A stretch of 64,000 nucleotides of DNA from Akebia trifoliata (lineage: Eukaryota; Streptophyta; Magnoliopsida; Ranunculales; Lardizabalaceae): the NCBI GenBank assembly GCA_017979445.1, contig CM030714.1, positions 14,317,892 to 14,381,891 of the forward strand, given 5' to 3'. Made by a program: the position numbers and the translations under genes. Positions within the stretch are counted from its first letter, which is position 1, and every line of letters begins with the position of its first letter. Under the pieces are notes generated by a model. That model was not told the origin of the DNA. It saw only the letters and a list, made by a program, of their open reading frames with translations, and made no database searches. Below, piece after piece: positions 9,841 to 63,085 of this stretch.

Positions 9841-9856
9841 TATATATATATATATA

Positions 9857-17624: not shown

Positions 17625-17626
17625 GC

Positions 17627-17646
17627 TTGACAACTCCATTGGGGAC
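17627..17646 (+). promoter_or_regulatory. Primer-binding site of element B
   Basis: TTGACAACTCCATTGGGGAC is a decayed form of TGGCGACTCCACTGGGGAC, the primer site of element C at 55399 and typical of the Tat/Ogre lineage. Confidence 0.7.
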
Positions 17647-27963: not shown

Positions 27964-28216
27964 GTCCGTTTCTTCAAAACGGACTGATTACTCTTGTCTT
28001 AGATCCGCTTTCCATAAACGGATAACACTAGGAAATTATTAATCCGTTTTTACAAAATGGATTTGGTTATTCGATCTTGAATCCGTTTTATAAAAACGGA
28101 CTGATCAATATTCCATAAATCCGTTTTATAAAAATGAACTGATCAATATTCCTTAAATCCGTTTTATGGAAACGGATTGATCAATACTCCTTCAGAACAG
28201 TTTAACCAAAACGGAC
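27964..28216 (+). repeat. Palindromic 38-39-bp tandem repeat, array 2
   Basis: Seven units start at about 27964, 28002, 28041, 28080, 28117, 28156 and 28194. The best cores are GTCCGTTT/AAAACGGAC and AATCCGTTTTATAAAAACGG. Spacers share CTGATCAATATTCC. The array ends ACGGACCAGTACTT, as in array 1, and lies about 140 bases upstream of the ATG of antisense gene 2. Confidence 0.85.
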
Positions 28217-28356
28217 CAGTACTTGCAACTCTTCCTTATGCCCTAAATTCGCGTTTTTTGTCTTCTTCCCTCTTGATTCTAATTGTGGAGCCCACGAATC
28301 TACAACAACAAGCTTGCATAGCTTTCTCTTCCCCCAAGATCTCCTTTCCAAGCCTC

Positions 28357-29951: not shown

Positions 29952-30455
29952 GTTGTTCCTTGCCTGTTATTCCTTCTTGTACCCTGCTTTCAACGAGAAT
30001 GATGTAGCACTTTTTGAAATGAATGAAATAGGTTTTTTACGTAGTGGCCTCATATATATCTACTGCTTTCGAAAACTCTTGATTTTAAGAAAAGTCCTAG
30101 ATTCTTTGTCATAGGCCAAAAATAGTAATTTTGATGATGCATTTTTTGTTTTGTTTTAGGTTTTAAAAGATTGCCTTTGTCGGATAATCTGTGACAGACT
30201 GTGTTTGAAAACTCTGAAAGTTAACGATCATGGTGCCTTTACTAAATGCCGAGAATACAAGTGTCAGCTAATCGTTAGCCTCTTTAGAGTCATCCCCGAG
30301 GCTGAGAATTTTGACTGAGTTATCTTAGTTGTATTTGTTGGAACAGTGAGGACTTCGAGATTTTTACCGTTCACAGTTTATACTATTACGGGCCAGTAGT
30401 TGTTTTTTTTTTTGCTTATTTTTTTTTGTTTTTTTTTTTTTAATTTTTTTTGCCT
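29952..30455. other. Element A, non-coding stretch after antisense gene 2
   Basis: No gene recognised. It contains the 3' flank of antisense gene 2 and T-rich tracts near 30400-30450, and borders the hairpin module. Confidence 0.4.
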
Positions 30456-30600
30456 CTGATGCCAGTTATGGTTTTCACCAGACCTGATTTCCACATTTTT
30501 GCGCATCGACGCCCTTTTTGTGTTTTCATCGTGCCGGTGGTTTTGATCTTGCCATAGACTGATTTTTTTACTCACAGTGCCCTGGCGGGTTTTCACCATG
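30456..30600 (-). repeat. 3' hairpin repeats of element A
   Basis: Read on the minus strand, three units have the form stem, GAAAAC-type loop, stem: CATGGTG/CACTGTG (30573-30600), CGATG/CGTCG (30507-30531) and CTGGTG/CATCAG (30456-30481). All stems pair, but four positions need G.U pairs, which exist only on the minus strand, the sense strand of the element. The same layout occurs in element C at 60643-60835. Confidence 0.65.
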
Positions 30601-31457
30601 CCCTTTCAGTCTATGCTTACTTTATAGATTTTTTACTTTGAATACCTTCTCGATTTCTGTGTGCCCTTTGTGGCTTGGTGACTCAAGTTGAGCTGCAAGA
30701 TCGAACACTCTACTCTTCTAGTGGCGTTCTTTCTTGAGTAACAGATCTGGACTCCCCTCTCGAGTTCCTCCGACGATTTTCATGGTGCGGTGACTCAAGT
30801 TGAGTTTCGAGATTGATGACTCTACACTTTGAGTTACTTTTTTTTTCAAATATTCGATCTGAACTCCCCTCTCGGGTCTTCCAACGACTTTGGCAGCTTG
30901 AAATCTGATTTGAGTGACAAGATTGACTACCCTTGATAATATTTCTCATGACGTGCTTCCACTATGATTGAGTTGCCTTGAACCATTCCCTGATCTAAGA
31001 GGACTTTAAATAGGATGAAACGTAGGCTTAGGTTAGGGTTATGATAAGAAAGGCTGAATCTAGATTTATTTAGGTAAAAGATGGACACGGGGTTGGTCTA
31101 TTTTTATTTCGAAAATATGATCTATGTCTCCTCCCAGCGTCTCACGAACTCATTTAGGTAGGAGATTTGGGTCGAGCTTAAGATCAATTATTCGAGATTT
31201 TTGACTTTTTAATTTTTTTTGTACTTTTAGCCGTTCACAGTTTATCCTCATACGGGCCAGGAGTATACTTTGGTATTTTTGTTTAGGCTTTTGATTTTTT
31301 TTTTTTTTGTGGTGGTGACTTGCCCCGGTCCTAGGTTAAGAAATGAATGTGATGGCTCAAAAAGGGTTAACTAAAGGTAGATAATTGTTCAGGTAGTAGA
31401 AAGATGGCCTCTCTTCATTTCAAGGAATGACTTTAGGCGTAATATTTTTTTACGGTA
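30601..31457 (-). other. Element A 3' untranslated region
   Basis: Repeated segments of about 100-120 bp begin with GTGACTCAAGTTGAG (about 30678 and 30790) and share ACTCCCCTCTCG blocks. CTCAAGTTGAG is itself a palindrome. No gene is present; the 79-codon minus frame at 30710 is not convincing. Confidence 0.5.
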
Positions 31458-32596
31458 TCAGCGTTGATCGGTTATGGAAAGACTTTCCCACATATCTCTG
31501 TAAGGATTAACGCTCCTCCGGACAGTACCTTTTGAACGACGAATGGCCCCTCGTAATTTGGACGAAACTGTCCTCTCGCATCTTCTTGTATTGGTAGAAT
31601 CTTCTTTAGAACTAAGTCTTCGGGTATAAACTCCCGAGGTCGAACCTTCTTGCTGTAAGCACATGCTATTCTTTGTTGATACGTTCGAACGTGACAAATT
31701 GCTGAAATACGTTTCTCCTCTATTAAGTTCAACTGATCGAATCAGGCTTGGACCCATTCTGCTTCATCCAATTCAACTTCTTTTAATATCCAAAGGGAGG
31801 GAATCTCGACCTCAATGGGCAAGACTGCTTCCATTCTGTAGACCAGTGAATAAGGCGTTGCCCCAGTAGAAGTTCGGATTGACGTTCGATAAGCATGTAA
31901 AGCGAAGGATAACATTTCGTGCCAATCCTTGTAAGTAACGGCCATTTTTTCGATAATTTTCTTAATGTTTTTGTTAGCGGCTTCAACTGATCCATTCATT
32001 TTTGGTCTGTAAATGACTGAGTTGTGATGGGTGATCTGAAAATCCTTGCGCATTTTAGACATGTCTTTGTTCTTAAGATTTTTGGTATTATTGGTTACTA
32101 TCCCGCTTGGGAGGCCGTACCGACATATGATGTTGTTCTTCACAAACTTCAAGACATTGCCTCTCGTAACATTGGTGTAAGATGCTGCTTCTACCCATTT
32201 CGTAAAGTAGTCGATGGCGACTAAGATGAAATGATGCCCATTGGAAGCTTGAGGATTGATCTGCCCGATGACATCCATGCCCCAGAGTGAGAAGAGCCAA
32301 GGAGAAGTCATATTATGCAATTCTGAAGGTGGTGTATTGATTTTGTTGGCATAGATTTGACACAAGTGACATTTTTGAACATATTGGTACCCGTCGCTCT
32401 CCATAGTCATCCAGTAGTAACCCATTCTCATAATTTTCTTTGCAAGCATATGTCCATTCATGTGAGGTCCACAGACTCCACCATGTACTTTTTCGATCAG
32501 ATGTTGAGCTTCTGTTTCTGTTACACACCTGAGGAAGACCTCGTGGTGTGACTTTTTGTATAAGACTCCGCTACTCAAGAAAAACTGTCCTGCCAA
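31458..32596 (-). pseudogene. Element A integrase
   Basis: An HHCC zinc-binding region comes first (VHGGVCGPHMNGH and CHLCQ). The core follows with the first catalytic Asp in WGMDVIG. The second catalytic site reads IVTNNTKNL, where this family normally has Asp-Asn-Gly, so the Asp is lost. Glu is kept in NGSVEAANK. A frameshift near 31735 moves the C-terminal GPY/F-type module (FRPNYEGPFVVQKVLSGGAL) to another frame (31472-31732). It reads leftward after the RNase H block with a short decayed linker. Inactive. Confidence 0.9.
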
Positions 32597-32784
32597 TCTC
32601 TGAATAGTCTTTCGATCGGTTGTTGTGGCATCGGGTGGGAAAGTTCGATCCTCTAAGAATGCCTTGATGTTTGCAAACTATGATTTTTCTTCAGGTTCTT
32701 CGATCCCCACAGGCAAGCAATATGCTGGCTCATCTTGAATACCAATCTCAAGAGGGTTGACTATGGTATCTTCGGATATGCTAA

Positions 32785-33800
32785 TCATTGATGCCAAAGT
32801 AGCCAATGCATCTGCAAACTGGTTCTTAGCCCTCGACATATAAATGAATGATAAGGAACTAGTCTCTGCTCTCGGGTTTTCCATTCTCCCGTTTTCTGGT
32901 AGACTAATAGACTTGAGTCTCCAAATATATCTATTTCATCAACTTCAAGGTCGATTGCTGCTTTCAACCCCACAATGCATGCTTCGTACTCAACTTCGTT
33001 ATTAGAACACTGAAACCTTAACTTGACTGCAATGGGGATATGAGTTCCGTCTGGCTTGACCAGGACTGCCCCGATTCCATTTCCCTTTTGATTTACTGCT
33101 CCATCGAAGTACTTTTTCCAACTAGATTCTTCATCGTCGCTTTCGGCTTCAGCAAACAGAATGACTTCATCAGGAAAATTTATCTTTAGTGACTCATAAT
33201 CGGGTAAAGGGTGCTCCGCTAAGTGGTCAGCAATGGCTTGTCCTTTAATGGCTTTTTGAGTGACATAGGTGATGTCAGACTCAGATAATAGTAGTTGCCA
33301 TTTTGCGGTGCGTCCCGTTAGTACTGACTTCTCGAAGAGGTACTTCAAGGGGTCCATCCGAGCAATGAGCCTAGTTGAGTAACTAAGTAAGTAGTGGCGT
33401 AGCCGTTGTGATGCCCAGACAAGGGCACAACATGTCTTCTCAAGAGTCGAATAGTTCGCCTCGTAACTTGTGAACTTCTTGTTAAGGTAATAGATGGCTC
33501 GCTTTTTCCGACCAGTTTCATCATGTTGCCCTAATACACAGCCCATGAAGTTTTCTTACACGGAAAGATACATCAGTAGAGGTCGACCTGGTGTAGGCGG
33601 GACTAAGACTGGTGGATTAAACAAGTATCTCTTAATCTTGTCAAAAGCTTCTTGACAGTCTTCATTCCATTCTTTCGGCTCATTCTTCTTCAGTAGTTTG
33701 AATACTAGCTCATAGATCGAAGTTAGTTGTGCGATGAACTAACTCATGTACTGAATTCTCCCTAGGAATCCCTTGATCTCTTTCTCTGATTTGGGTGGCT
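32785..33800 (-). pseudogene. Element A RNase H plus second (archaeal-type) RNase H
   Basis: The first RNase H runs from about 33600, where a TAA at about 33556 interrupts the frame, through VLGQHDETGRKKRAIYYLNK and YSTLEKTCCALVWASQRLRH. After a connector, a second RNase H starts at WKKYFDGAVNQKGNGIGAVL with acidic residues in FDGA, NNEVEYEA and FGDSSL. This duplicated RNase H is a hallmark of the Tat lineage. The frame breaks again at about 32790. Catalytic acidic positions of the second domain are still visible. Confidence 0.9.
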
Positions 33801-34530
33801 CCATATTTATGATGTACTCCGTTTTAGCTAGATCAATTTCTATTGACGATGAACTCCAATAGCTTTCCTGATGTTGCCCCAAATACATACTTTGTCGGAT
33901 TAAGTCTTAGGCTGTACTTCTTTAATCGGTCAAACAGTTTCTTCAAGTTCACCAGATGATCCTCGTCGATGTTTGATTTAGCTATCATGTCGTCTACGTA
34001 TACTTCTATCTCCTTATGGATCATGTCATGAAATAAGGCAGTCATGGCTCGTTGGTAAGTTGCCCCAGCATTCTTGAGACCAAATGGCATGACCTTATAG
34101 TGAAAGGTATCCCAAGGTGTAATGAATACAGTCTTCTCTTGATCTTCTTCCGCCATTTTTATTTGATTGTAACCCAAGAATCCATCCATGAAAGAGAACA
34201 TACCGTGCCCTACTGTATTATTGACCAAAGTGTCGATTTGTGGTAACGGAAAGTCATCTTTAGGACTGGTACTATTTAGATTCTGGTAGTCTACACACAT
34301 GCGTACTTTTCCATCCTTCTTTGGCACATGAACGATGTTAGCGAGCTACTATGGGTAGGTGGATACTATGAGAAACCCTGCTTGGAACTGCTTCATTACT
34401 TCGTCCTTGACTTTAAGTGTCCACTCTGGTTTCAACCTTTGTAATTTCTGCTTGATCGGCTTGTTTCTTACTTTGATAGGTAACTTGTGAACGACTAGAT
34501 CTATGTCTAAATCAGGCATATCTTGGTAGG
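33801..34530 (-). pseudogene. Element A reverse transcriptase
   Basis: Homology begins near 34520 (LPIKVRNKPIKQKLQRLKPE). A double stop (TAGTAG) at about 34350 precedes LANIVHV. The uninterrupted core 34327-33833 has VPKKDGKVRMCVDYQNLN, FMDGFLGYNQI, FGLKNAGATYQRAM and the catalytic YVDDM. A frameshift near 33835 follows GKLLEF. The stops fit C-to-T changes. The catalytic aspartates are intact, but the frame is not. Confidence 0.92.
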
Positions 34531-35475
34531 ATTATGCGAAGACATTTTGGTACTGTTGTAAGAACTTTGTCATTTTCTCTTTCTGCTCAATCGTTAATAG
34601 GACTCCGATTTTAACGATCCATGGGTCATCTTCGATGCTTAGGTTCACTGAGTTTGTATCCTCTATATTTGGTTGAACATCTTTCTCGTGACGTTCTATG
34701 AGTTCTTTGATTTCTTTTGAAGGATATTCAACCTTTTCCTCTAACTCTTCTTCAATCCCATGAGATCAAAGTCGAGCTCGAGGTCAAAGTCGTATTCATC
34801 TCTTTCATACTCTGTTCTGTCACAAGATTCATTCAACTGAGGAAATTCTCTGGAAACCTTAGGTATTTTCAAGATTTCTAATATTTTTGAGTTTTTGAAA
34901 ATATTTGATTTTTTTGAATTTTGGAGAGTTCTTGATTTTTTTGAATTTTGAAAGATTTTTGATTTTTTTGAATTTTGAAAGTTTTTTAATTTTTTTGGAT
35001 TTTGCGGGCTATCCAAATGCTTGAAACAAGATGAAGAAAAATCATGCAAATTCATTAGCAACGAAGGTAAGCCCCCAAAACAGTCTTGTCCTGAGGACGA
35101 GGGCTCATTATGGTCCTTGGGCAGATGAGATTTTGCTAATGGTATTTTTTTTTAGGTCGTAGGGATTCTGGACCCCATGACGACCTCATAAGTGATTGGG
35201 TATTCCTCCAAATTCTTGAAGACTTGCCCTTCTTTTGTAGGGTAGATAAGTCGGGAGAGTGACTCCCTTAATGGTTCAGATATGACCATCACTTCTGAAT
35301 GACTGTCGTCAAGTCGGGGGTACTTGTAGGGTGGTGGAATTACGACAGATCCCCAATCGATTTGAAAGAGGGACAGTGATCTTTCTTCTTCGCATATTGC
35401 GACTTTCGCCTTAGCGGGTTCTCTTTCTTCTTCCTCTTGACTCCGTTCGGAATCCCCTCCGAACAAAATGTCCAT
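34531..35475 (-). pseudogene. Element A linker between protease and reverse transcriptase
   Basis: There is no catalytic domain. The frame 35475-35152 is charged (EEEEREPAKAK). The frame 35061-34741 contains a 27-bp tandem repeat (about 34860-35010) encoding KNFQNSKKSKIF-like units, followed by a Glu/Asp-rich patch. Such variable acidic linkers separate protease and reverse transcriptase in large Tat elements. It is assigned by position only. Confidence 0.5.
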
Positions 35476-35659
35476 GCCATCTGTAAAGGAATGTGGGGAC
35501 TCAACGAATGAGTTTTCTTACAATTGAATGGGTTCAATACTTACAATACTTGGTTCTCATGTGTGGTTTGTCGGTGGTAGTTCTGATAAGTCATCTGGCC
35601 TCCTCAAGGATTGTGGGAAGTTGATGCTGATGTATGGTATTTTGCCCAAGTTCTATACA

Positions 35660-36481
35660 TTAGGCTCTTGGTTGTCTTTGTGCAAGTCGAAGCTCCCTCT
35701 TTTTATTATTCATATCAGAGATGTCCTTCCTCGTAGGCTTGAAACTAAGACCAAAATAGGGAGTGTGTTTTTGCATTCTGATCAAAGTGGCCCTGCCTTT
35801 TTCTTTAGGCCCTAACCTTTGTTTCGGACGATATCCCGCCTTCTTCATCACTCGTTTAATCATTAGATTTATTTTTGACCATTCTGCCCTTGTTTTCTCC
35901 TTCCCTCTTGGGATATTATTGATAGATGTGAACTGGAAAGCGTGAAACCCCTCTTTATCCCCGGTCATCTCTACATCAATATAAGGCACATCCGGCAATC
36001 GATTGACTGGTATGAGATTTTCTGCGAGGACCGATATCACCCTTTGTCCCATGATGAATTTGACTCGCTGGTGTAAGGAAGAAGGGACTGCCCCTGTGGT
36101 ATGAATCCAGGGTCTTCTTAGAAGGAGATTGAATGCTGAGGGTGTGTTTAGGATTTCAAACGTTACTTTAAACGTGCATGATCCAATAGTGACTGGGAGA
36201 TCCAGTTCTCCTAACGACTCAATTTTTCTATTATCAAAAGCCCTTATGGTCCTTCTAGTTGGCCTGAGGTAAGATAAATCTGCGTTTAACTTGTGCAAAG
36301 TTTGTATAGGACAAACATTAAGAGCCGAACCATTGTCGATTAGTACCCTTGCTACCATCATACCTTTATACATTACCATAATGTGCAATGGTTCAATGTG
36401 TCCACACCCCTCGCTGATAAATTCATCCTTGGTGAAGGTGATCGGATTGGGGGTCATGATCTGGCCTACCGTCTTTTCCAA
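35660..36481 (-). pseudogene. Element A retropepsin-like protease
   Basis: The frame encodes 273 residues. The active-site motif reads VLIDNGSALNVCP, an Asp-Asn-Gly-Ser variant of the usual Asp-Thr/Ser-Gly. The ELDLPVTIGSCTFKVTFEIL and FNLLLRRPWIHTTGAVPSSLHQ blocks follow, as in plant Ty3/gypsy proteases. The C-terminus (YFGLSFKPTRKDI) matches the last readable part of element B (FGLHFRFIKKDIPG). The catalytic Asp is intact. Confidence 0.85.
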
Positions 36482-37739
36482 CTCTTCTGGTGAGGTGGTC
36501 TCAGGTATATGTCACTATTAAGGACTTTGAGTAATGCTTCCCGATGATGCTCTGAGTTTAAAAACAGGTCAAAGATACTGATTTGAGCTGACATTCTGTT
36601 CAACTGTTCTACTACATTGTACTCACTCTTTCGAATAAGTTTGAGGAGGTCAGCTACCTCCTTGTCAGTTACTCTGCTCCTCTTCTTCTCTGGTTCTCCT
36701 TGTGGTATTTGTTCCTCCTCTACCAACTTTCCTTTCCCTTTTTCTTTTCTTCTATCCTCTTCCTCGTTCTGCTTTTTTTGTTTTTTTTTGATACTTTGTA
36801 GCACTTCCCTGATCTAGTCATATGCCCAATGTCTGTGATCATCGCCTCTTTCGACTTCTCAACTCCTACGGATATCACAATCATCGTCTCATAACTCCAT
36901 GGGACGGTTTGACTTGAGCGGTATGGAAATGGTTTAGGGGATATAATGGTCATGGGTTGAGGGTCTGGTTTTAGATGAAGGATGAGAGGTGGTGGATTAG
37001 GCTTGACGGTTGATGTAGTGGTGTTTGAGACTTGTGGGTTGGTGTAAGATAGGATGATGGGTGGTCGGGAGGAAAAGTTTGAAGTTTGAGGGGTCGGTGC
37101 AGTGTAATATATTACCATAGGTGGTCGAGAAGAAGGGCCTGAAGTTGGTATGGTGCAAGGTATAATGAGAGGTGGCCGAGAGGTAGAGCTTGAAGTGGGT
37201 AATGTGTATGGTATAATGAGACGTGGTTGTGAAGGATTTGAAGTTTGGGAGTTGGAGTGAATGGTAAGATTGGCCAAATTGATTGGAAGTTGGGATGATG
37301 ATTGGTTGGTTGTATCTGGTGGCAATGCATTGATGCTTGATGATGTTGGTTCTTTCCTCAGATTGACTTTAACCTTAGAGCCAATTGGTGCTATCAAAAC
37401 TGAAGGGTTGAAGCTCGGTTCATCCCTCTCTATGGAATTGACTGTCGGCTCACTACCTCCCCCATTATGCCTCGGTAGCGGGTTCTGATTGATATTCTGC
37501 TGAGGTGCTTGGGTTGCCAGACCATCCAAGATGATCGTTTTCCTATCGATTAGATTTTGAACTTGGTGCTTAAGTTGCCAGCATTGGTCGGTGGTATGCC
37601 CCAGTGCACCCATATGGAACTCACAGAATTGTTTGGGATTATACCCTGATCCCTTTACCGCCTCTGGGTTTGGCTGTCTTTTAGTAAGATATTCTCCCTT
37701 AAGTAATGCTGGAAGTAGTTCTAATAGAATCATAGACAA
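36466..37739 (-). pseudogene. Element A gag C-terminal half with zinc knuckle
   Basis: 37739-36720 contains a CCHC-like knuckle, CEFHMGALGHTTDQCWQLKH, then QVQNLIDRKTIILDG. A long Pro/Ser-rich stretch follows. The frame 36804-36466 continues with a Lys/Glu-rich segment (KKKQKKQNEEEDRRKEKGKG) and KEVADLLKLIRKSEYNVVEQ. Element B has collinear counterparts at 49829-51067. Confidence 0.85.
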
Positions 37740-37811
37740 GTGGGTGAAGACTCGAGGGACCCTGTTGGGTCGGCGCTGCTCAGTTTGATGATTCTGGGCA
37801 AATTGTGGGTT

Positions 37812-39014
37812 TTACCCAAACACTGGATTTTGTCCGTAGTGAAATGTCGGTGGAGCCGGTGCAGCTTGAGGTGGGTTTACCTTGAAAGAGACTTGAGGTA
37901 TTGGCGGCCTCTGGTTTGGTGTTGAGATGAAGAAAGGACGAATAGGTTGCACATTATTAACTTGGGCATCATCTTTTTTCTTGTTCAAGACCGTCGATTT
38001 CCGTTGAGTAGATCCCCCTGTTGGTGCCCCTAGACTGGACAGGTCGTAAATCAAACCTGATCGGATACCGTCCTCAACTCGAACCACCACTTGGACCAAT
38101 GACGAGAAGCTTGCAGTTGTATGACCCACTAGGTGCGTATAGAATGAATGGCCCAAAGTTGAGATGAATATGGTGTTCATCTCTTGTTCAGTCATTGGTG
38201 GCTTCACTTTAGAAGCCGATTCCCGCCACCTTTGGGCATACTCTTTCACACTTTCTTTTGGCTTTCGAGTCATTTTGGCCATGTCATTTCTGTCCAATCC
38301 CATGTTCGTATTGAATCTATACTCTTCCGGGAAAATTGTAACCAGGTCTTGCCAGCTCTTAATCCATAAATGATCTAATTAAGATGACTATGAGAGGGCC
38401 GCCCCTGTTAAACTCCTTTGAAAGAGCTGAACTAACAACCTGTCGTCATTACCAAATTGGCACATAGAACCACAGTAGAGTTTCAAGTGGGATAGAATGC
38501 ATCCAATGCCGTTATACTTTTCGAAGTCAGGACACTTGAATTTCGATGGTAATGGTGCATTTGGGTAGAGGCAAAGATCTCTAAACCTCATTCCGCTTGC
38601 AGAATCCTTTCCTTTCATTCTTCGGATCTCCTCTTCAACTGCTTCTAACTTGTTTGCTAATTTTTCTTCTGTGGTACTTCTTACCTCAGTTGCTCTAAAT
38701 TTGCCTTCTTATTCTTGAACGACATCTTGTCGCTGAGGGTTGCAATGAATGTGGATTGGTGGCCCTTGATTAGTCGGAGCCATGGGAGGTAGAATATTCT
38801 GTACCAGTGGTGGTAGTTGTTGGTGTTGTTCCGGTGTGGCCTGATTCGAGCCTGAGGTTTGATGTTGAATAGCCTGAATGATGCTCCGATTTGCCATTAG
38901 TAAGTCCAAAATCTTATCATGTTTTTCCAACGCCTTTACCACTATATCTAGCTTCGAAGTGAGATCTGTTATGACTTCTGTTGCCGACTGTTGAGGTTGC
39001 TCTGAGGTACTCAT
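37812..39014 (-). pseudogene. Element A gag N-terminal and capsid region
   Basis: The start MSTSEQPQQSATEVITDLTS is followed by a TAA at 38709-38711, a coiled coil (EEKLANKLEAVEEEIRRMKG) and the capsid block (FKCPDFEKYNGIGC, LVQLFQRSLTG). After stops near 38388 the frame resumes at GLDRNDMAKMTRKPKESVKE and YAQRWRESASKV (retrotran_gag) and ends at a TAA at 37812. Confidence 0.88.
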
Positions 39015-39221
39015 AATTGGTTGTGAGAGTAGAAAATACGGAGGATTGTCGGGTGGTAAGTACTTCTTTCTGGGTCATTTGGCTAGCTGTAGACAAAAGG
39101 TTAGGCATTAATATATCGTTTACACAATGAAGATGCATGATAATTTATTAGGTCAGATTGGATTAATTGGTAAAGTTGCATTAAGAAAGCCTTGAATTTG
39201 GTTGAGGTTGGATTTTTTTTT

Positions 39222-39832
39222 TGTCAGCACGGAGCTGGGGTTCGTCGGTACGGAGCCAGATATTGATCAACATGAAGCTGGGGTTTGTCAGCACGGAGCT
39301 GAAGGTTTGTCAGCACGAAACCAAATATTTGTCAGCACGGAGCTGGAAGTTTGTCAGCATGGAGCCGAAGGTTCATCGGCACAGAGTCGGAGGTTTATCG
39401 ACACGAAGTCGAAGGTTTATTAGTACGGAGCCGAAGGTTCATCAGCACAGATCTGGGGTTTGTCAGCACGGAGCTGGGGGTTTATCGGCACGGAGCCTGA
39501 TGTTTGTTAGCGCAGAGCCGAAAGTTCATCAGCACAGAGTCGGAGGTTTATCGGCAGGAAGTCGAAGGTTTATCAGCACGGAGTTGAAGGTTCATCAGCA
39601 AGAAGCTGGGGTTTGTCAGCACAGAGCTAGGGGTTTATCGGCACGGAGCCAGATGTTTGTCAGCGCAAAATCGAAGGTTTGTCAGCACAGAGTTGGAGTT
39701 TGTCAGCACAGAGCCGGAGGTTTGTCAGCACGAAGCCGGAGGTTTGTCAGCACGGAGCTGGGGGTTTATCGGCACGGAGCCGGAGTTTGTCAGTGCAGAG
39801 CCGAAGGTTTGTCAGCACAGAGCTGGGGTTTA
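39222..39832 (-). repeat. 22-bp minisatellite in the leader of element A
   Basis: About 28 units of 21-22 bp, plus-strand consensus GTCAGCACGGAGCTGGGGTT. Each has a four-base stem around a five-base loop. Stem types CAGC/GCTG, CGGC/GCCG and CGAC/GTCG all occur; about one third of the units pair perfectly. The 210-codon frame across it is a repeat artefact. Confidence 0.9.
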
Positions 39833-40744
39833 AATTATTTTTTTTTTTTGTAACTTGTTAGAAAACGATTGGATTTATTTGAATTAGCCAAAAGGTTGTT
39901 GATTCTGATGGATCATATTTTGGGTTGAAATTGGAAGATGGGCCTACTTTGGGTTGAATATGGATTATGGATCGATTCGAAAATGGATATGGCTCATAGA
40001 CTCAATTCAGATTGGATATGGGTCAATGGACCTGGGTTGGATTAGATATAGGTTGTAGACCCAATTCAAAATGGATACGGGTCGCGGATTACATTTGGAT
40101 CAGATATGGGTCGTGGACCCAATTAGAATGGATATGGGTCGTGGACCCATTTTTGAAGTGGGTATGAGTCATGGACCCAATTGGATATGGATATGGGTCA
40201 CGGACCTACTTGAAAATGGGTATGGGTCGTAAACCCATTTGAAAATGGATATGGGTCGTAGACTATTTGGGAATGGGTATGGGTCGTAGACCCATTTGGA
40301 AATGGATTTTGAAGCGAATATGGGTCGTGGACCCATTGGGAATGGATCTTGAAGCGGATTTAGGTCGTGAACCCATTTAGAAATGGATATGGGTCATGGA
40401 TCCAACTGGAAGTGAGTATGGGTCGCAGATCCATTTTGGTGTAGATATGATTTGTGGGCCCGATTTAAATTGATCCTCGATGATGGATGATGGCAAGGTT
40501 GATAGTGTGCTATGTTGGATCAAGATTAATATCGATAGGTAGAGTGTAGGTGAGCTCCGTTTGGATCCAACACCAAGTGATGAGGGGTGGGCCCTAAACT
40601 TAACGATAAAAATTATCCATTCAATCATTTTAAAGTCTTGAAACTCAAAAGAAAAATAAAGTCCAAGAGAAAAGTTGTCAGGACTGATGTAAGGGATGAA
40701 ATGAGAAAATTTTTTTTATAAAATTTTTTTGGGACCCTTTTTTC
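39833..40744 (-). repeat. GGGTC..GACCC hairpin repeats in the leader of element A
   Basis: From about 39980 to 40440 an irregular unit of about 30-36 bp repeats around ATATGGGTCGTGGACCCA, whose GGGTC and GACCC pair around a three-base loop. Variants such as GGGTCGTAGACCC keep the pairing; others do not. Element B has decayed copies at 21165-21215. Confidence 0.7.
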
Positions 40745-41617: not shown

Positions 41618-42136
41618 TGTAGACATGAGAATGTTCATCCTTGAACCTCAATGCTACGTCGTTTGGAGTAGCCACCATTCTTTTTTGTAAATGGGTGTGA
41701 ATGGGCACCCGAATCGATTATTTTGAAAATAATTTTTTATGGCATTGTAGTGACTCTCAATCATGAAAAAGGTATGGTCTACCTAAGATCTAAGTAAGGG
41801 GATTCGGTTAGAGAATAGGGAAGGTGTTAAGCACCCCATTCTCTCCACCTATGGTGGTTACCGTTAGATTTGACCATTTCTTAAAAGATTAACATGACAA
41901 GTGAAATGCATGAGATGTATGAAGTGGGTCGGTGCACATAGTGTGTATGTATCCCTTTGAAAGAGGATTTAATGTTTGTGTAGACATGAGGAATATCCTA
42001 TAGGAGAGGATATCCCATAAAGTCATCAGATTTTTACATGAATTGGAATGTTGGTTTAGGATTATAAAGAAGTTCCATGAATGGAGTTTCCTTTAGATCC
42101 ACAACATTAATGCATGCATGCTTACCTAGAAACTTA
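41618..42136 (-). repeat. 5' LTR of element A, part adjoining the PBS
   Basis: Matches the 3' LTR from 21452 to about 21970. It is interrupted at 42136 by the Harbinger transposon, which duplicated TTA. Confidence 0.88.
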
Positions 42137-42139
42137 GGG

Positions 42140-51081: not shown

Positions 51082-51850
51082 ATGGCTCCTAACCTGATCG
51101 TCTTCACAGAAAACGAATTTATTCAGGAAGGACGCAGACACATCGAGCTATTAAACATTATGATTATGTGCAAAGGTATGATGGTCTCCAGGGTACTAAT
51201 CAATAACGACTTGGCTTTTAATGTCTGTCATTTAGAAACCTTCCGCAAGTTGAATGTAGATTGGTCCCATGTTAAACCCAATAACAAAGTAGTTCAAGGA
51301 TTCGACAGCTCAAGGAGGGACTCCCTTGGAGAAATTGATTTGCCAGTCACTATTGGCCCATATACTTTCGATGTTACTTTTGAAGTGATAGACATACCAG
51401 CAACGTTTAATCTTCTGTTAGGAAGGCCGTGTATTCATATTGCAGGGGCAGTACCATCTTCTTTATACTAAAAGGTTAAATTCATAATGGGACAAAATAT
51501 GATATCAGTTCTAACAGAAAACTTAATCCCAGCATGGCGAACTCCAGATGTACCATTCATAGACGTGGAGATGACAAAGGACAAGGTGGTGTACCATTCT
51601 TACCAATTCACTACGGTCAACCAGGTTAAAAAAGGAAAGGAAAGAGTAAAGACAAAATTGTCAATGGCAAACTTGATGATTGGACGGGTAATGAAGGAAG
51701 TTGGTTACCAACCCAAGTATAATTTGAGGCTAGAAAGAAAAGATAGAATCATCCCAATCATTGCACATTAGCATACGCCTTACTTCGGTCTCCACTTCAG
51801 GTTTATAAAGAAAGACATTCCTGGCATGAACGACAAGACAAGACTAAAAC
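51082..51850 (+). pseudogene. Protease region of element B
   Basis: Collinear with element A's protease. The active-site region reads VLINNDLAFNVC, so the catalytic Asp seen in A (IDNGS) is Asn here. EIDLPVTIGPYTFDVTFEVI and FNLLLGRPCIHIAGAVPSSL follow, with a TAA near 51470. The frame ends at the inverted LTR at 51851. Confidence 0.82.
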
Positions 51851-53618
51851 TGAAAGCGCCCTCGATCCGCGGGGTGCGCGGATCCGCTTTTGACCCTTGA
51901 GGTTTGGGAGTCGCCACCTAGTTATTACGGTCTAGGAACCGATCAATGACTCTAAACGGATAAAAACTAATCTAAAACCAAAAAAAAAACTGAATTCGGG
52001 GATCATGTTACGGGATTGGAAGGTGTTAGGCACCAACCCCGCCCGGCCAAAGCCGATCTCTACTAAATTCCCAAGTAAATTACATTGCTAAAACCTAGAT
52101 AAAAAAATAAATAAAAATAAAAGGTTTACCTTTCCAATGGCAAGGACTTGGTTCCCTCAGATCTGACAAAAAGAACTCCTTGTACCGTGCTCCCTTGCTT
52201 CGTTCTGTTTCCGGATTTGACTTCGGATCTCCGAGGCAAGGTATCTCCTTGTTTTTGAATCTGAATTCTTCAAGTTCGTTGCGGATTTGGGGGTGTTTTT
52301 AGAAGGCTTTTGGGTGTTTTCTAGACTAAAATTGAAGGAGGGATGTTAGCTAAGGAGTTGGGGCTCCAAAACTAGGGTTTATGGGGGGCTAGGGGAGCTT
52401 CTAGACCTACTTCTCCTAGGGTTTATCATTTGATACGAAAATAGGGTGTGAGCACCTCTATTTATAGATGTTTTTAGGGGTTGATTTGGATAGAGTTAGT
52501 GTTTAATTAGAGATCTTTTAATTAGAGTTGTATTTTAATTTGACTTGTTTTAAGTAGAATTGTATTTTAATTAGAATTGTTTTAGGTAGAATTGTGTTTT
52601 AATTCAAATTGTTTTAGGTAGAATTATTTTTAAGTTAGAACTCTATTAGATAGAGTTATTATTTAATTAGAATTCTATTATGACTTTTGGTCTTATTTGA
52701 TTGACTTTTAATGTTTTGACTTTAGTCTTAATTGATTGACTTGACTTCAGTCTTGCTTAATTGACTTTAATTTTGACTTCAGTCTCACTTGATTGACTTT
52801 AATACCTTGACTTTAGTCTTGCTTGATTTACTTTTAATTTTTGGAGAAGGCCCCTTTCATTATTTCTTTAATTCTTTGGACCCCCAAATTGAGGGGTTCT
52901 TAAAGAAATATCTCACGAACCCTCAACAATTTTGCCTGAGAACCCGATTGATCGATTTTTTAGGTTCAAAATTTTAAATTAATTTCATTAATGTTTCACT
53001 TTAATTATTTAATATTTATTTATTAATTTCGAAATTTTTAATTATGAAAATTGTGAAATTACCGTTTTGCCCCCAGAGAGGACTTTTCACGTTTCAAGTC
53101 GGTTTTTAATGTTCCAGGATGTTTTAGAATCGATTTTTCGTAAGGAATTCAGTGGAAATATTAGTTTTTGTTATTTATGAAGTTTTTTTGTGTGAAATGG
53201 TTGTGAACTTTACGAGGGGCATTTTCGTAATTTTGTCAAATTCTGTTAAAATTGGTGAAATGATTTATTTGGTTCCGATTTGTTATTTTATGTGTTCGAG
53301 AGAGTTTTCCTAAGCGTAACGTAGCCTCTAGGGTTGTTTTGAGGTTAGGGATATTTTGGTAATTTGGTAATTTTTAGTGATTTTTATCGTGAAGTTTCTT
53401 TCTGGTCTGCAAGATGATGATTTCTATGTTTCTGGGGTCGTATTTTCCTAGCGTAGCGTAATTTCTAAGGTTTTGTCAGTTCGAGATACCTCATCCGGAT
53501 TTCTGAAACATATCTGGTAACAAAATAAAGCATTGGAATACACATCCATCATTGGGAATCATTGCAATCGGGTTGACGAGTTGATTAATCAGGCGGATGC
53601 AAAAATGGGGTGTCTACA
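51851..53618 (-). repeat. Inverted LTR of the element C family
   Basis: The reverse complement starts TGTAGACACCCCATTTTTGC and ends GGCGCTTTCA, as in the element C LTR. Where I compared them, the two differ by several percent, far more than C's own pair. No matching 5-bp duplication flanks it (AAAAC on the left, GATCG on the right), so it is not a clean solo LTR. The 62-codon frame at 52789 is not a gene. Length 1768 bp. Confidence 0.88.
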
Positions 53619-53664
53619 GATCGACGATTTCTCAGTTTCCTGCACCTTAACCGAGTCAATTAGC

Positions 53665-55397
53665 TGTAGACACCCCATTTTTGCATCCGCCTGATTAATC
53701 AACTCGTCAACCCGATCGCAAGGATTCCCAATGATGGATGTGTATTCCGTTGCTTTATTTTGTTACCAGATTTGTTTCAGAAATCTAGATGAGGTATCTC
53801 AAATTGACAAAACCTTAGAAACCACGCTACGCTAGGAAAGTACGACCCTAGAAACATAGAAATCATCATCTTGTAGACCAAAAAGAAGCTTCACGATAAA
53901 AATCACTAAAAATTACCAAATTACCAAAATACCCTTAACCTCAAAACAACCTTAGAGCCTACGTTACGCTTAGGAAAACCCATTCGAACACATAAAATGA
54001 CAAATCGGAACCAAATAAATCATTTCACCAATTTTAACAGAATTTGACAAAATTACGAAAATGCCCCTCATAAAGTTCACAACCATTTCACACAAAAAAT
54101 TTCATAAATAACAAAAACTAATATTTCCATTGAATTCCTTACGAAAAACTGATTCTAAAACATCCTAGAACATTAAAAACCGACTTAAAACGTGAAAAGT
54201 CCTCTCCGGGGGTAAAACGGTAATTTCATAATTTTCATGATAAAAAATTCCGAAATTAATAAATAAAATATTAAATTATTAAATTTAAACATTAATGAAA
54301 TTAATTTAAAATTTTGAATCTAAAAAATCGATCAATCGGACTTTCGGGTAAAATTGTTGAGGGTTCGTGGGATATTTCTTTAAGGACCCCTCCATTTGGG
54401 GGTCCAAAGAATTAAAGATATTTTAGAGGGGGGTTCTCCCAAAATTAAAAGTAAATCAAGCAAGACTGAAGTCAAGGTATTAAAGTCAATCAAGTGAGAC
54501 TGAAGTCAAAATTAAAGTCAATTAAGCAAGACTGAAGTCAAAATATTAAAAGTCAATCAATTAAGACTAAAGTCAAAACATTAAAAGTCAATCAAATAAG
54601 ACCAAAAGTCATAATAGAATTATAATTGATTAATAACTCTATCTAATAGAGTTCTAACTTAAAAATAATTCTACCTAAAACAATTCTAATTAAAACATAA
54701 TTCTACCTAAAACAAGTCAAACTAAAACACAACTCTAATTAAAAGATCTCTAATTAAACACTAACTCTATCCAAATCAACCCCTAAAAACATCTATAAAT
54801 AGAGGTGCTCACACCCTATTTTGGTATCAAATCATAAACCTTAAGAAAAGTAGGTCTAGAAGCTCCCCTAGCCCCCCATAAACCCTAGTTTTGGAGCCCC
54901 AACTCCTTAGCTAACATCCCTCCTTCAATTTTAGTCTAGAAAACACCCAAAAGCCTTCTAAAAACACTCCCAAATCCTCAACGAACTTGAAGAATTTAGA
55001 TTCAAAAACAAGGAGATACCTTGCCTCGGAGATCCGAAGTCAAATCCAGAAACAGAACGAAACAAGGGAGCACGGTATAAGGAGCTCTTTTTGTCAGATC
55101 TGAGGGAATAAAGTCCTTGCATCGGAAAGGTATTTTTTTTATTTATTTTTATCTAGGTTTTAGCAATGTAATTTACTTGGGAATCTAGTAGAGACCGGCT
55201 TTGGCCGGGCGGGATTGGTGCCTAACACCTTCCAATCCCGTAACATGATCCCCGAATTCAGTTTTCTTGGTTTTAGATTAGTTTTTATCCGTTTAGAGTC
55301 ATTGATCGGTTCCTAGACCGTAATAACTAGGTGGCGACTCCCAAACCTCAAGGGTCAAAAGCGGATCCGCGCACCCCGCGGATCGAGGGCGCTTTCA
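53665..55397 (+). repeat. 5' LTR of element C
   Basis: Starts TGTAGACACCCC and ends GGCGCTTTCA directly before the PBS. It is 1733 bp. A TATA-like CTATAAATAGAGG lies at about 54793-54805. The first 516 bases can be compared with the window-truncated 3' LTR and are almost identical. Confidence 0.93.
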
Positions 55398-55398
55398 G

Positions 55399-55417
55399 TG
55401 GCGACTCCACTGGGGAC
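55399..55417 (+). promoter_or_regulatory. Primer-binding site of element C
   Basis: TGGCGACTCCACTGGGGAC begins two bases after the LTR. This is the Tat/Ogre-type primer site, reported for this lineage as matching a tRNA-Arg 3' end. Confidence 0.85.
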
Positions 55418-59411: not shown

Positions 59412-60104
59412 TATCAATCGATATGGGGATACCTTTTGAACTGATCTCTGATAATGGGTCGTACTTCAAAGCTTAAATCATTACTCTGTGTTCAAAGTTG
59501 AAGATCCGGAATCACAAATCATCCTTCTACCGTCCTCAGATCAATGGAACGGTTGAAGCAGTTAGTAAGAGTATCAAGATTATCATTAGGAAAATGAGTC
59601 AATAACATCGACATTGGTCAGAAAAATTATCATTCACGCTGTGGACATATCGAACTCTAATTCGATCCTCTATTGGAGTTATTCTCTACTCCTTAGTGTA
59701 TGGCATGGAAGCAATCTTACCAGTTGAAATGAAAATTTCGTCTCTCAAGGTCTTGTTAGAAAATCATTTATTAGAAACAGATTGGGTTCGTCAGCAGTAT
59801 GAAGAATTAAACTTGATCGAAGAAAACGAGTTAAAGCCCTGTACCACGTGCAAGCTTATCTAAGAAGAGTCACCTGTGCATTTGACAAGAAGGTTAAAGC
59901 TCATCATTTACAAGTCAAAGATTTAACTATCAGACTTCAAAGAAAATTGAACACTCCTCCTCGATTATAGGAGAAAGTCTAAATTGGAAAAATTCATTCA
60001 TTAAAGAAATACTGTCTGGAAAAGTCGTCAGACTTCAAGATCATGATGGAGGTGAACTACCAGAACCAACCAACATTGACCAAATCAAACGGTACTACAT
60101 TTAA
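59412..60104 (+). pseudogene. Integrase C-terminal remnant of element C
   Basis: Starts inside the catalytic core with the second Asp in FELISDNGSYFK, then FYRPQINGTVEAVSKSIK with the Glu. WTYRTLIRSSIG and YSLVYGMEAILPVEMKISSL match element A's integrase. After a frameshift, LYHVQAYLRRVTCAFDKKVK and DGGELPEPTNIDQIKRYY complete the usual C-terminus, with a TAA at 60102-60104. Several internal stops. Nothing upstream of the core (zinc finger, RNase H, reverse transcriptase) remains. Confidence 0.85.
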
Positions 60105-60642
60105 GGAGGCCATCTTTGACCGAATCAATTCTCCTGTTACCCAGTTCAATATATCCTTTCTCAACCCCTTTGCAACCTTTTTCAAAAAGAAAAATTATGC
60201 CTTTTTCTTTCTTAACCCGATCACCTAACCTAGGGGAGGGAAAGTTCGAACTACGTTTTGGTCTGATCCCAAAATTCTGGGGTACGTAGGCAACCTGAGA
60301 AGTTACTTCAGGCCCGACCACATCAAAGTACAAAAAAAAAAAAAAAAAAAAAATCTATTTCCCCTACACAGTAAAAAATCAAGAAAAAATTCAAAAGAAA
60401 AAGAAATATCATCCAAAATGGGGAAGAAAATTTAAAGAAAAAGAAATAATTTAAAAGGAAATGCCACACAAGGGGCATTTGGGTTTTTGAGCCTCAAAAT
60501 TCCTTTTTTTTACCCAGTCCCAAGCCTACCTATAAAAGTCCTCCTAAGTACCGTGTGAAAAGTCAAGGAGGGTGGCAAAGCATGATCAGACAGTAAATTC
60601 TAGAAGTTCAAAGGAGAAGAAAAAGATAAGTGAAAATACCTA
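60105..60642 (+). other. Element C 3' untranslated region
   Basis: Non-coding. The block at about 60247-60310 (CGAACTACGTTTTGGTCTGA, GGGTACGTAGGCAACCTGAG) resembles a conserved stretch downstream of pol in many plant Tat elements. A poly-A run lies at 60330-60352. Confidence 0.6.
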
Positions 60643-60835
60643 CTAAGTTGAAAACTCGAAAAGGGTGACTTAGGCAAAAATTAAGGCAAGCTCGCAAAGT
60701 TGAAAATCTGAAAGGACAACTTTGGCAACAATCAGAGCCAAGAAAAAAAGCTCGCTAGATCGAAAACCTGAAAAGGCGATCTAGGCAAAAGTTAGAGCAA
60801 GCTCGCTAGATTGAAAACCTGAAAAGGCGATCTAG
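60643..60835 (+). repeat. 3' hairpin repeats of element C
   Basis: Four units share a GAAAAYYYGAAARG-like loop between pairing arms. CTAAGTTG/TGACTTAG (60643-60673) has two G.U pairs. CAAAGTTG/CAACTTTG (60695-60724) and CTAGATCG/CGATCTAG (60755-60784) are perfect. CTAGATTG/CGATCTAG (60806-60835) has one G.U pair. The arms differ between units, yet each still pairs. Confidence 0.85.
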
Positions 60836-61614
60836 GCAAAAGTTAGAGCAATAAAGAAAAAACAGAAGAAAATCCCAAGCTGAGAAGGGTCCGAGCTAAA
60901 ACATCAGAAGTCCGAATAATCAAGTTCAATACTTAGCTTAAACCCGGCATAGACTCAGAAACCACAAGTATCTTGTCTACGATCGATCTGAAAATGTTTA
61001 CTACCCCAAGTGAACCAAGGGAGATAAAGGTGAATTCTATGATGAGTCTCAAAAGGAAATAATTTTGTACTCTTGAGCCTGACTCAAAACCTTCAATAAA
61101 ATTAATCAAAATTAAATATTGCGCTTGGGGTAATCAATTATTTCAAACCTTCATACAAGGGGCATTTTATTTCTTTTTTTAATGTAACTTTTCCCCCTTA
61201 TACTAGGGGCATTTTTTTTATGATGTGTTCAATTATTTTCAAGGCCATGGCCATTGTCAAACTAGAGGCATTTTGCTTTTGAGCAGTGTTAATCCTAAGA
61301 TATAATGACAACCCCAAATTTAAGGTAACCCTCTTGATAACAGTTTTTCAAAAAACTCTTGAAGTTCGAAAGAAATAAAAATTCAGGTTTTAAAACTTTT
61401 TGATAAATCCTTGAGGTTCAAACAAAAGCATTTCGGATCTCACATAGGAGATATAACATTCTTCCAGATTCAATCATTCTTGGAATCAATCATTTCTCTT
61501 CCAGATTCATTATCTTCGTTTTCCGGTTCGTTCCAATCAGTTTTCTCCAAATTCGTTCATTCATTCATCTGTCAGTTATGCTCAGATACCGCCGAGGGTT
61601 TTCTCGGAATTTTT
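60836..61614 (+). other. Element C, non-coding stretch before the minisatellite
   Basis: AT-rich, with ACTAGAGGCATTTT / ATACTAGGGGCATTTT-like repeats at about 61155-61275. No gene recognised. Confidence 0.5.
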
Positions 61615-62769
61615 GCTCAGTCTCCGCCAAGGGTTATCTTGGATTTTGCTCAGTTGCCGCCAAGGGTTATCTTGGATTTTGCTCAGTTGCCGCCAAGGGT
61701 TATCTTGGATTTTGCTCAGTTTCCACCAAGGGTTATCTTGGATTTTGCTCAGTTGCCGCCAAGGGTTATCTTGGATTTTGCTCAGTTGCCGCCAAGGGTT
61801 ATCTTGGATTTTGCTCAGTTTCCGCCAAGGGTTATCTTGGATTTTGCTCAGTTGCCGCCAAGGGTTATCTTGGATTTTGCTCAGTCTCCGCCAAGGGTTA
61901 TCTTGGATTTTGCTCAGTTGCCGCCAAGGGTTATCTTGGATTTTGCTCAGTCTCCGCCAAGGGTTATCTTGGATTTTGCTCAGTCTCCGCCAAGGGTTAT
62001 CTTGGATTTTGCTCAGTTGCCGCCAAGGGTTATCTTGGATTTTGCTCAGTTGCCGCCAAGGGTTATCTTGGATTTTGCTCAGTTTCCACCAAGGGTTATC
62101 TTGGATTTTGCTCAGTTGCCGCCAAGGGTTATCTTGGATTTTGCTCAGTTGCCGCCAAGGGTTATCTTGGATTTTGCTCAGTCTCCGCCAAGGGTTATCT
62201 TGGATTTTGCTCAGTTGCCGCCAAGGGTTATCTTGGATTTTGCTCAGTCGCCGCCAAGGGTTATCTTGGATTTTGCTCAGTCTCCGCCAAGGGTTATCTT
62301 GGATTTTGCTCAGTCTCCGCCAAGGGTTATCTTGGATTTTGCTCAGTTGCCGCCAAGGGTTATCTTGGATTTTGCTCAGTCTCCGCCAAGGGTTATCTTG
62401 GATTTTGCTCAGTCTCCGCCAAGGGTTATCTTGGATTTTGCTCAGTTTCTACCAAGAGTTATCTTGGATTTTGCTCAGTCTCCGCCAGGGGTTATCTTGG
62501 ATTTTGCTCAGTCTCCGCCAAGGGTTATCTTGGATTTTGCTCAGTTGCCGCCAAGGGTTATCTTGGATTTTGCTCAGTCTCCGCCAAGAGTTATCTTGGA
62601 TTTTGCTCAGTCTCCGCCAAGGGTTATCTTGGATTTTGCTCAGTCTCCGCCAGGGGTTATCTTGGATTTTGCTCAGTCTCCGCCAAGGGTTATCTTGGAT
62701 TTTGCTCAGTCTCCGCCAAGGGTTATCTTGGATTTTGCTCAGTCTCCGCCAGGGGTTATCTCAGAACTA
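61615..62769 (+). repeat. 33-bp minisatellite of element C
   Basis: Thirty-four full units and a partial one at exact 33-bp spacing. Each unit contains CCGCCAAGGGTTATCTTGG, in which CCAAG pairs with CTTGG. Units vary mainly at TTG/TCT/TTT before CCGCC. All three forward frames stay open because 33 is divisible by three and the unit has no stop; the resulting frames of 559-597 codons are not evidence for proteins. Confidence 0.95.
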
Positions 62770-63085
62770 TGCTCAGATACCGCCAAGGGTTATCTTGGAA
62801 CTATGCTCAGATACCGCCGAGGGTTTTTCTCGGAATTATGCTCAGATACCGCCGAGGGTTTTCTCGGAATTATGCTCAGATACCGCCGAGGGTTTTTCTC
62901 GGAACTATGCTCAGATACCGCCGAGGGTTTTCTCGGAATTATGCTCAGATACCGCCGAGGGTTTTCTCGGAACTATGCTCAGATACCGCCGAGGGTTTTC
63001 TCGGAATTATGCTCAGATACCGCCGAGGGTTTTCTCGGAACTATGCTCAGATACCGCCGAGGGTTTTCTCGGAACTATGCTCAGG
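62770..63085 (+). repeat. 34-35-bp minisatellite with GAGGGTTTTCTC units
   Basis: About nine units with GCTCAGATACCGCCGAGG followed by GTTTTCTCGG; some have one extra T. CCGAG pairs with CTCGG, the counterpart of CCAAG/CTTGG in the previous array. One isolated unit also precedes the first array at 61579. Confidence 0.9.

What the first reader, a model, noticed from the sequence alone, without database searches (positions are those of the whole stretch)
60643..60835. Covarying hairpin repeats in the 3' region of Tat elements
Seen: four tandem units in element C keep an A-rich loop of one pattern while their 8-base arms change together (CAAAGTTG/CAACTTTG versus CTAGATCG/CGATCTAG). Element A has the same layout on its own sense strand at 30456-30600. 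There, four positions that mismatch on the plus strand become G.U pairs on the minus strand. Inference: an RNA structure in the element transcript has been under selection, perhaps for packaging, dimerisation or 3' processing. I know of no named motif for this.
Basis: partly seen in the sequence, partly recalled or inferred. Interest (0 to 1): 0.75.

Follow-up and report, generated by a model that had tools for sequence, protein, structure and literature searches.

The report
Selected RNA hairpin array in retrotransposons
Related families of plant "jumping genes" carry, behind their enzyme genes, a row of about three to four small RNA hairpins whose pairing seems to have been kept by evolution in the direction in which the element's RNA is made, which suggests an undescribed signal that the RNA uses to get itself copied.

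Summary
The "A-rich loop" is an AAAA bulge, a 3-bp inner stem and a 4-5-nt loop on a 7-8-bp stem; an outer helix and an A-rich linker usually frame it (about 49 nt). A descriptor scan of the window finds six such hairpins, C1-C4 (+) and A1, A3 (-), each on its element's sense strand; shuffles average 0.33. Copies from the same 652-Mb plant genome give the key result: in the main stem, pair states in the majority or in five or more copies are G.U:A.C 28:1, those private to one copy 17:17. So pairing of the sense RNA was selected while the element moved. Element C, probably young and stripped of genes, still keeps the array, which points to a cis signal for mobilisation. Best guess: protein-binding hairpins of the genomic RNA (Gag/packaging); main rival, RNA export. 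Against: no single pair is significant in an R-scape-like test, the outer helix shows no wobble asymmetry, and the function is inferred. Paper searches listed no description.

The parts
60638..60687 (+). unit C1: hairpin 60643-60673 (CTAAGTTG / TGACTTAG, loop GAAAA)
   Evidence: cmsearch 53.5 bits; fold -7.7 kcal/mol, z -2.9; outer P1 (ACCT/AGGC) has one A.C here
60690..60738 (+). unit C2: P1 GCTC/GAGC, P2 CAAAGTTG/CAACTTTG, P3 TCT/GGA
   Evidence: (z -2.6)
60750..60798 (+). unit C3: P1 GCTC/GAGC, P2 CTAGATCG/CGATCTAG, P3 CCT/AGG, loop GAAA
   Evidence: (z -6.2)
60801..60849 (+). unit C4: as C3 with one U.G in P2
   Evidence: (z -5.3)
30553..30615 (-). unit A1: P1 CATAGACTGA/TCAGTCTATG, P2 CATGGTG/CACTGTG, AAAA bulge, P3 CCC/GGG
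   Evidence: alone no better than shuffles (z -0.6)
30491..30540 (-). unit A2: P1 CCAC/GTGG, P2 GCACGATG/CGTCG(A)TGC with one bulged base; inner stem mismatched in the window copy
   Evidence: (E 0.22, model built without A units)
30455..30482 (-). unit A3: P2 TCTGGTG/CATCAGA, P3 CCA/TGG, loop UAAC
   Evidence: not found by the covariance model
59426..59791 (+). integrase C-terminal remnant of element C with in-frame stops at 59474 and 59603
   Evidence: tblastn 45.5% identity to the integrase of element A, E 1e-28
53664..55397 (+). 5' LTR of element C; partner 3' LTR begins at 63464 and runs past the window end
   Evidence: 6 mismatches in 1731 sites; no matching target-site duplication seen
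31742..38378 (-). gag-pol region of element A (gag, RT, RNase H plus a second RNase H-like domain, integrase); LTRs 41618-42137 and 21452-21970
   Evidence: Pfam on six ORFs, two of them without a match; self-blastn

Best explanation
The feature is a tandem array of about 3-4 structured RNA elements in the sense (gag-pol) transcript, between pol and the 3' LTR. Each unit is P1 - P2 (7-8 bp) - AAAA bulge - P3 (3 bp) - 4-5-nt loop, with an A-rich linker (GCAAAAATTA in C) before P1'. Shown: pairing of P2 and P3 is kept while the sequence changes; the wobble pattern of P2 is specific to the sense strand and to pair states that spread with the transposing lineage; the bulged A's show no substitution in the family A copies examined. 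Inferred: the units act in cis on the genomic RNA during mobilisation. The likeliest mechanism is that a protein, most probably Gag (nucleocapsid), recognises the hairpin, with bulged A's and loop as readout and the stem as scaffold, and that the repeats give avidity, so the RNA is chosen for packaging into virus-like particles. Non-autonomous relatives would need the same array to use a helper's machinery. Confidence: about 0.9 for sense-strand RNA structure under selection, about 0.4 for the Gag/packaging step.
For: (1) P2, pair states in the majority or in five or more copies against private ones: G.U:A.C 28:1 against 17:17, p 4e-5; without majority states 18:1, p 8.5e-4; all helices 39:8 against 32:31, p 6e-4. 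With a 10% frequency cut (families A and C only) P2 is 16:0 against 27:22, p 5e-4. (2) Unpaired-column controls: GU-type:AC-type transitions in family A are 6:11 at five or more copies but 20:10 among private ones (A-rich columns); in the C flank 57:41 at 10% or more, 44:30 between, 54:42 private, so a mild excess that does not change with frequency. (3) Tree-simulated null: P2 94.1% paired against null means 0.49-0.58, maximum 0.83; P3 89.3% against about 0.58, maximum 0.88; 0 of 1200 simulations each. (4) One real unit per class, 10 units: P2 70 of 70 standard pairs, shuffle mean 53, 0 of 20000 (the antisense reading, 61 of 70, also exceeds its shuffles, so this test does not tell the strands apart). 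(5) Bulge adenines 0 of 512 cells substituted against 76 of 1501 for upstream adenines, family A. (6) Element C: LTRs differ at 6 of 1731 sites; only an integrase remnant with stops; array intact; stop 59474 is shared by 16 of 25 copies aligned there (30 kept of 33 run). (7) The core pattern with up to 2 mismatches occurs 21510 times in the genome against 3261 for the reversed control.
Against: No single pair is significant in an R-scape-like test (best E 0.67, though the three top-ranked of 378 pairs are structural). P1 and P3 alone show no significant wobble asymmetry (P1 3:3 against 9:8; P3 8:4 against 6:6); at 10% or more P1 has 2 A.C and no G.U. The low A.C share of P3 is not unusual under the tree null (56-68 of 400 simulations as low), and for P2 14, 0 and 8 of 400. 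Some common states break pairs: in A1 P1, A.C in 9 of 42 and A.G in 19 of 41 copies; in C4 P2, A.G at the outermost pair in 22 of 84. In family A alone pairing does not exceed arm shuffles. Loops are not uniform (GTCA in 24 of 43 A1 rows). All copies come from one genome. No protein has been shown to bind.
Confidence: 0.5

Rival explanations
1. Nuclear export or stability element: the array recruits a host export/TREX factor or shields unspliced genomic RNA, as retroviral CTE, IAP RTE, musD MTE and the RSV direct repeats do.
For: cis RNA structures of LTR retroelements with this role exist; the RSV direct repeats flank src (passages read in PMC3856414 and PMC12786077); that several of them lie before the 3' LTR is recalled. 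Cis action also fits the gene-poor element C.
Against: No Rfam match at the gathering score in the window, and none up to E 5 at 60500-61000. Plant LTR elements generally lack introns, Ogre being an exception (passage in PMC12786077), which weakens the need. Nothing measured.
Confidence: 0.22
2. RNA processing signal: the array regulates 3'-end formation or read-through between gag-pol and the convergent antisense gene.
For: In element A it lies between the end of pol and antisense ORFs on the other strand.
Against: Element C retains the array although little recognisable coding sequence is left; the wobble evidence concerns the pol-sense strand.
Confidence: 0.1
3. Target of the element's own antisense-encoded protein, a Rev/RRE- or N/boxB-like pair.
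For: Element A carries an antisense ORF with a plant mobile domain (PF10536, E 5e-12); small GNRA-like loops are protein targets in phage boxB RNAs (passages of PMC12550061).
Against: Of two antisense ORFs of A searched in element C, one gave nothing convincing and the other a weak match (E 0.007) overlapping the 33-bp tandem array; the ORF with the strong domain match was not searched there. No RNA-binding evidence for the domain.
Confidence: 0.08
4. No RNA function: neutral tandem repeats with inverted arms (a DNA hairpin or duplication by-product), as in the known hypervariable 3' UTRs of Tat elements.
For: Tandem repeats in this region are a known property; C3 and C4 are recent duplicates (98%). 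No pair significant in the R-scape-like test; family A arms do not beat shuffles.
Against: Strand-specific G.U excess limited to common states, unsubstituted bulge, tree-simulated null.
Confidence: 0.06

Closest known systems
Hypervariable tandem-repeat 3' UTR of Tat-lineage (Ogre/Retand) elements
   Same: Same place, between pol and 3' LTR, tandem units (passages or parts of PMC11963269, PMC3305785, PMC7004042).
   Different: Those repeats are described as variable in sequence and length; three papers searched by term mention no hairpin, stem-loop or secondary structure. Here the architecture is shared between families and pairing is selected.
Retroviral export elements: MPMV CTE, IAP RTE, musD MTE, RSV direct repeats
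   Same: cis RNA structures of LTR retroelements, the RSV one repeated (passages).
   Different: No Rfam match; architecture not compared in detail; function here unknown.
MS2-type coat-protein operator hairpin (recalled)
   Same: Stem with bulged A on the 5' side, short upper stem, 4-nt loop; a stem that can vary.
   Different: Four bulged A's, outer helix and A-rich linker; no relation implied.
Phage boxB RNA / GNRA-like loops
   Same: GNRA tetraloops, some pentaloops and UMAC loops such as UAAC can take the GNRA fold (PMC12550061 passages); GAAA, GCAA, GAAAA and UAAC occur here.
   Different: A1 mostly GTCA, A2 mostly AAAAA, A3 also UAAU; no antitermination context.

Membership tests
Tat/Retand-Ogre lineage of Ty3/gypsy elements (element A) | dual RNase H after RT | tested here: met
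   RT_RNaseH at 3-92 and RVT_3 at 150-237 of one ORF; the feature itself from a passage of PMC9289625
[quoted passage not shown]
   pol ORFs end near 31742, LTR at 21970; antisense ORFs with PMD/DUF7745 similarity, two of three below the Pfam cut-off; no TRP28 named among the Pfam matches of the three ORFs scanned
Tat/Retand-Ogre lineage of Ty3/gypsy elements (element A) | placement in the RT tree | not tested
   no reference RT set was used
Tat lineage (element C) | coding domains | tested here: inconclusive
   only an integrase remnant; window 45.5% and five other C-family loci 48-62% identical to A over the matched pieces
Known RNA families (Rfam 15) | score above the curated threshold | tested here: not met
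   no match in the window at gathering scores; none up to E 5 in 60500-61000; element A not searched at E 5
Retroviral CTE/RTE-type export elements | promotes export of unspliced RNA | not testable with these tools
   experiment needed
Retroelement packaging signal | preferential binding by Gag and enrichment in particles | not testable with these tools
   experiment needed; retention in a gene-poor family is only consistent
GNRA-loop hairpin | GNRA loop in every unit | tested here: not met
   C, B1 and B2 units mostly GAAA or GAAAA, but B3 mostly GAAG/AAAG, A1 mostly GTCA, A2 mostly AAAAA

The most novel reading that the evidence does not exclude
[quoted passage not shown] To my knowledge it would be the first such RNA element defined for plant Ty3/gypsy elements, and it might explain why this region keeps generating tandem repeats.
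Probability: 0.3. Interest if true: 0.8.

Novelty: new variant of a known kind. Interest (0 to 1): 0.62.

Why it matters
[quoted passage not shown] A selected, strand-specific RNA element, whose core pattern occurs thousands of times in one genome, gives a concrete object to test for export and packaging. It also offers a reason why gene-poor families remain mobile. The comparison of common with private wobbles is a simple test for RNA-level selection in any repeat family.

Tried and rejected
Searched in vain for related loci outside the genome: IMG/VR by two patterns and by the element A integrase, plasmids and phages. Prokaryote genome contigs gave four hits with one core each and no tandem neighbour, taken as chance. 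Two core patterns have no match in the own genome: GAAAACCCGCAAAGGGC and one with G/C-only arm bases; the tool warns that very common words may be skipped, so this does not exclude further families. No held paper contains six core strings.

Weakened or rejected: a plain 'A-rich loop'; a strict GNRA loop as the common feature; wobble asymmetry in P1 and P3 (not significant). Outer helix P1 is 24 of 24 in six real units, but 24 of 720 permutations do as well. In the 14-unit alignment 6 pairs change on both sides, but 24 of 500 shuffles reach that, and the number of pair types is not raised (470 of 500). In family A (33 rows, 25 distinct) pairing does not exceed arm shuffles (0.961 against a mean of 0.959).

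Rows dropped before counting: nine identical arrays, L010 (same element as L009), the A-type loci L021, L035 and L044 (counted in family A), seven weak matches; one duplicate A row. Units were given to classes by nearest reference, so a few may be misfiled. Searches used only units of 49-50 nt (B, C). For the 10-unit test the A units came from L021, whose A2 is unbulged and so more favourable than the window's. Family B was left out of the 10% test. One search left out the bulged A2. In one search three of 33 loci fell below the alignment score kept.

Full report
What is there. The window lies in a 652.5-Mb genome, a plant's to judge by its elements. Element C (+ strand) has a 5' LTR at 53664-55397, a coding remnant whose last open piece ends at 60101, the hairpin array at 60638-60849, a 33-bp tandem array of about 45 copies at 61579-63073 and a 3' LTR from 63464. 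Element A (- strand) has LTRs at 41618-42137 and 21452-21970, gag-pol in 38378-31742, the array at 30615-30455, and antisense ORFs beyond it.

Anatomy. Folding single units as RNA gives the same shape for C2, C3 and C4: ((((((((....(((....))))))))))), that is an 8-bp stem, AAAA bulge, 3-bp stem and 4-nt loop; C1 has a 5-nt loop, and A1 a 7-bp stem. The opposite strand of each of the seven pieces folded is less stable (for example C4 -5.6 against -9.4, C1 -1.7 against -7.7 kcal/mol). A1 and A2 alone are not better than shuffles (z -0.6, -1.7), and the A3 piece I folded was off register. Fetched copies show an outer helix P1, GCYY/RRGC in families B and C, CATAGACTGA/TCAGTCTATG in A1 and CCAC/GTGG in A2, with an A-rich linker on its 3' side. 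On 13 distinct B and C units 96.4% of 195 cells form standard pairs, and 6 of 15 pairs show changes on both sides, spread over the three helices, a number that 24 of 500 shuffles also reach. The covariance model built from B and C units ranks A2 (E 0.22) and A1 (E 1.1), on the right strand, directly behind the four C units in the window; an unrelated place follows at E 1.2, and A3 is not found. This is weak support only.

More than chance. A descriptor without any sequence in the arms finds six hits on both strands of the window: C1-C4 (+) and A1, A3 (-); 60 shuffles give mean 0.33, maximum 2.

Families. I saw three: A (43 rows aligned, 42 kept), C (85 loci after removal of identical arrays, 69 of them with four units) and B (12 loci, three units each). 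Family B has no integrase match in the three longer loci looked at.

Selection on RNA, and on which strand. A transition on one side of a Watson-Crick pair gives either G.U (still pairs in the sense RNA) or A.C (pairs only in the antisense RNA). Mutations after insertion should give both about equally, and states private to one copy do: 32:31 over all helices, 17:17 in P2. States present in five or more copies, or in the majority, mostly arose in the transposing lineage: 39:8 overall and 28:1 in P2 (p 6e-4 and 4e-5); without majority states 27:8 (p 0.017) and 18:1 (p 8.5e-4). The first, smaller data set gave 33:4 against 33:36 (p 2e-5); the overall contrast shrank when copies were added, which I put down to recurrent changes in dead copies of the large C family passing the five-copy mark. 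A frequency cut of 10% (families A and C) gives 19:2 against 60:54 (p 0.0013) and in P2 16:0 against 27:22. Controls: in unpaired columns the two kinds of transition are 6:11 (five or more copies) and 20:10 (private) in family A, and 57:41, 44:30 and 54:42 (common, middle, private) in the C flank. The C flank has a mild GU-type excess, but it does not change with frequency, so mutation bias does not account for the contrast. P1 and P3 alone show no significant asymmetry; P1 is the least supported helix by this test.

Pairing against phylogeny. A G-test with APC and a tree-based simulated null finds no single pair significant (best E 0.67), although the three best of 378 pairs are structural. 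I read this as changes lying on few deep branches, between unit classes. A whole-structure version is clear: P2 94.1% and P3 89.3% of cells paired, against null means of 0.49-0.58 and 0.58-0.59; none of 1200 simulations reaches either, though for P3 the null maximum is 0.88. With one real unit per class, P2 is 70 of 70 (shuffle mean 53, 0 of 20000) and P3 30 of 30 (5 of 20000). The tree was made from the same 28 columns, a limitation.

Unpaired parts. In family A the twelve bulge adenines show no substitution in 512 cells, while adenines upstream of the array show 76 of 1501; two A2 copies have a shortened bulge. In B and C the bulge is AAAA in nearly all units counted, but one unit per locus there was found by a pattern that contains it, so only A is a fair test. 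Loops are mainly GAAA or GAAAA in C, B1 and B2, GAAG/AAAG in B3, GTCA or GCAA in A1, AAAAA in A2 and TAAC/TAAT in A3.

Mechanism. The LTRs of element C differ at 6 of 1731 sites, all transitions, so the copy is probably young, with the reserve that no matching target-site duplication was seen and that its 5' LTR sits head to head with an inverted LTR. In its interior I found only an integrase remnant with stops at 59474 and 59603; the first stop is shared by 16 of 25 copies aligned there, the second by 6 of 27 (30 kept of 33 run). RT, RNase H and gag of element A find no relative there at E 1e-3, and Pfam sees no retroelement domain in seven open pieces. So this family multiplied after breaking its integrase and apparently losing its other genes, yet kept a hairpin array with sense-selected pairing. 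This is what a signal needed in cis for mobilisation by a helper would show. Gag/packaging is my first choice (0.4), export/stability second (0.22), processing and an antisense-protein target lower. All of this last step is inference.

Known or new. Tandem repeats between pol and 3' LTR are a known feature of this lineage (passages of PMC7004042; parts 1-2 of 5 of PMC11963269; part 1 of 3 of PMC3305785). Term searches for hairpin, stem-loop and secondary structure found none in PMC11963269, PMC7004042 or PMC6317226. Library searches listed no paper that announces such a structure (most seen as listings only), and Rfam has no match. The library lacks most subscription papers; I did not see the 2009 Gene paper on these 3' UTRs. 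I rate it a new variant of a known kind: a cis-acting RNA element of a retroelement, with its own architecture.

Noticed in passing
61579-63073: 33-bp tandem array, about 45 copies at 94% match, between the hairpin array and the 3' LTR of element C; of the satellite-seeding type known for Tat elements.
   Followed up: no
51849-55399: Large inverted repeat: an LTR of the C type lies head to head with the 5' LTR of element C (90.8% over 2.9 kb), and no target-site duplication of element C was seen.
   Followed up: partly
25397-25885, 28138-28734, 29214-29714: Antisense ORFs of element A with plant mobile domain (PF10536) similarity, above the Pfam cut-off only in the first (E 5e-12), and weak DUF7745 similarity in the other two.
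   Followed up: partly
39220-39831 and 39981-40307: 22-bp (about 28 copies) and 29-bp (about 11 copies) tandem arrays inside element A, between its 5' LTR and gag.
   Followed up: no
7085-10167: Tandem array of a roughly 400-bp unit, 7.8 copies at 80%, with inverted relatives nearby.
   Followed up: no
16001-18000: Strong GC skew (-0.53) over 2 kb, the largest of the 32 intervals in the window.
   Followed up: no
L140:313-363, L143:315-365, L145:308-358, L147:312-362: Weak extra unit-like match (12-19 bits) just behind the array in four C-family copies; possibly a decayed further unit.
   Followed up: no
60235-60320: Stretch holding GGGGTACGTAGGCA upstream of the array; from memory such a stretch recurs in Tat elements of many eudicots, not tested.
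   Followed up: no
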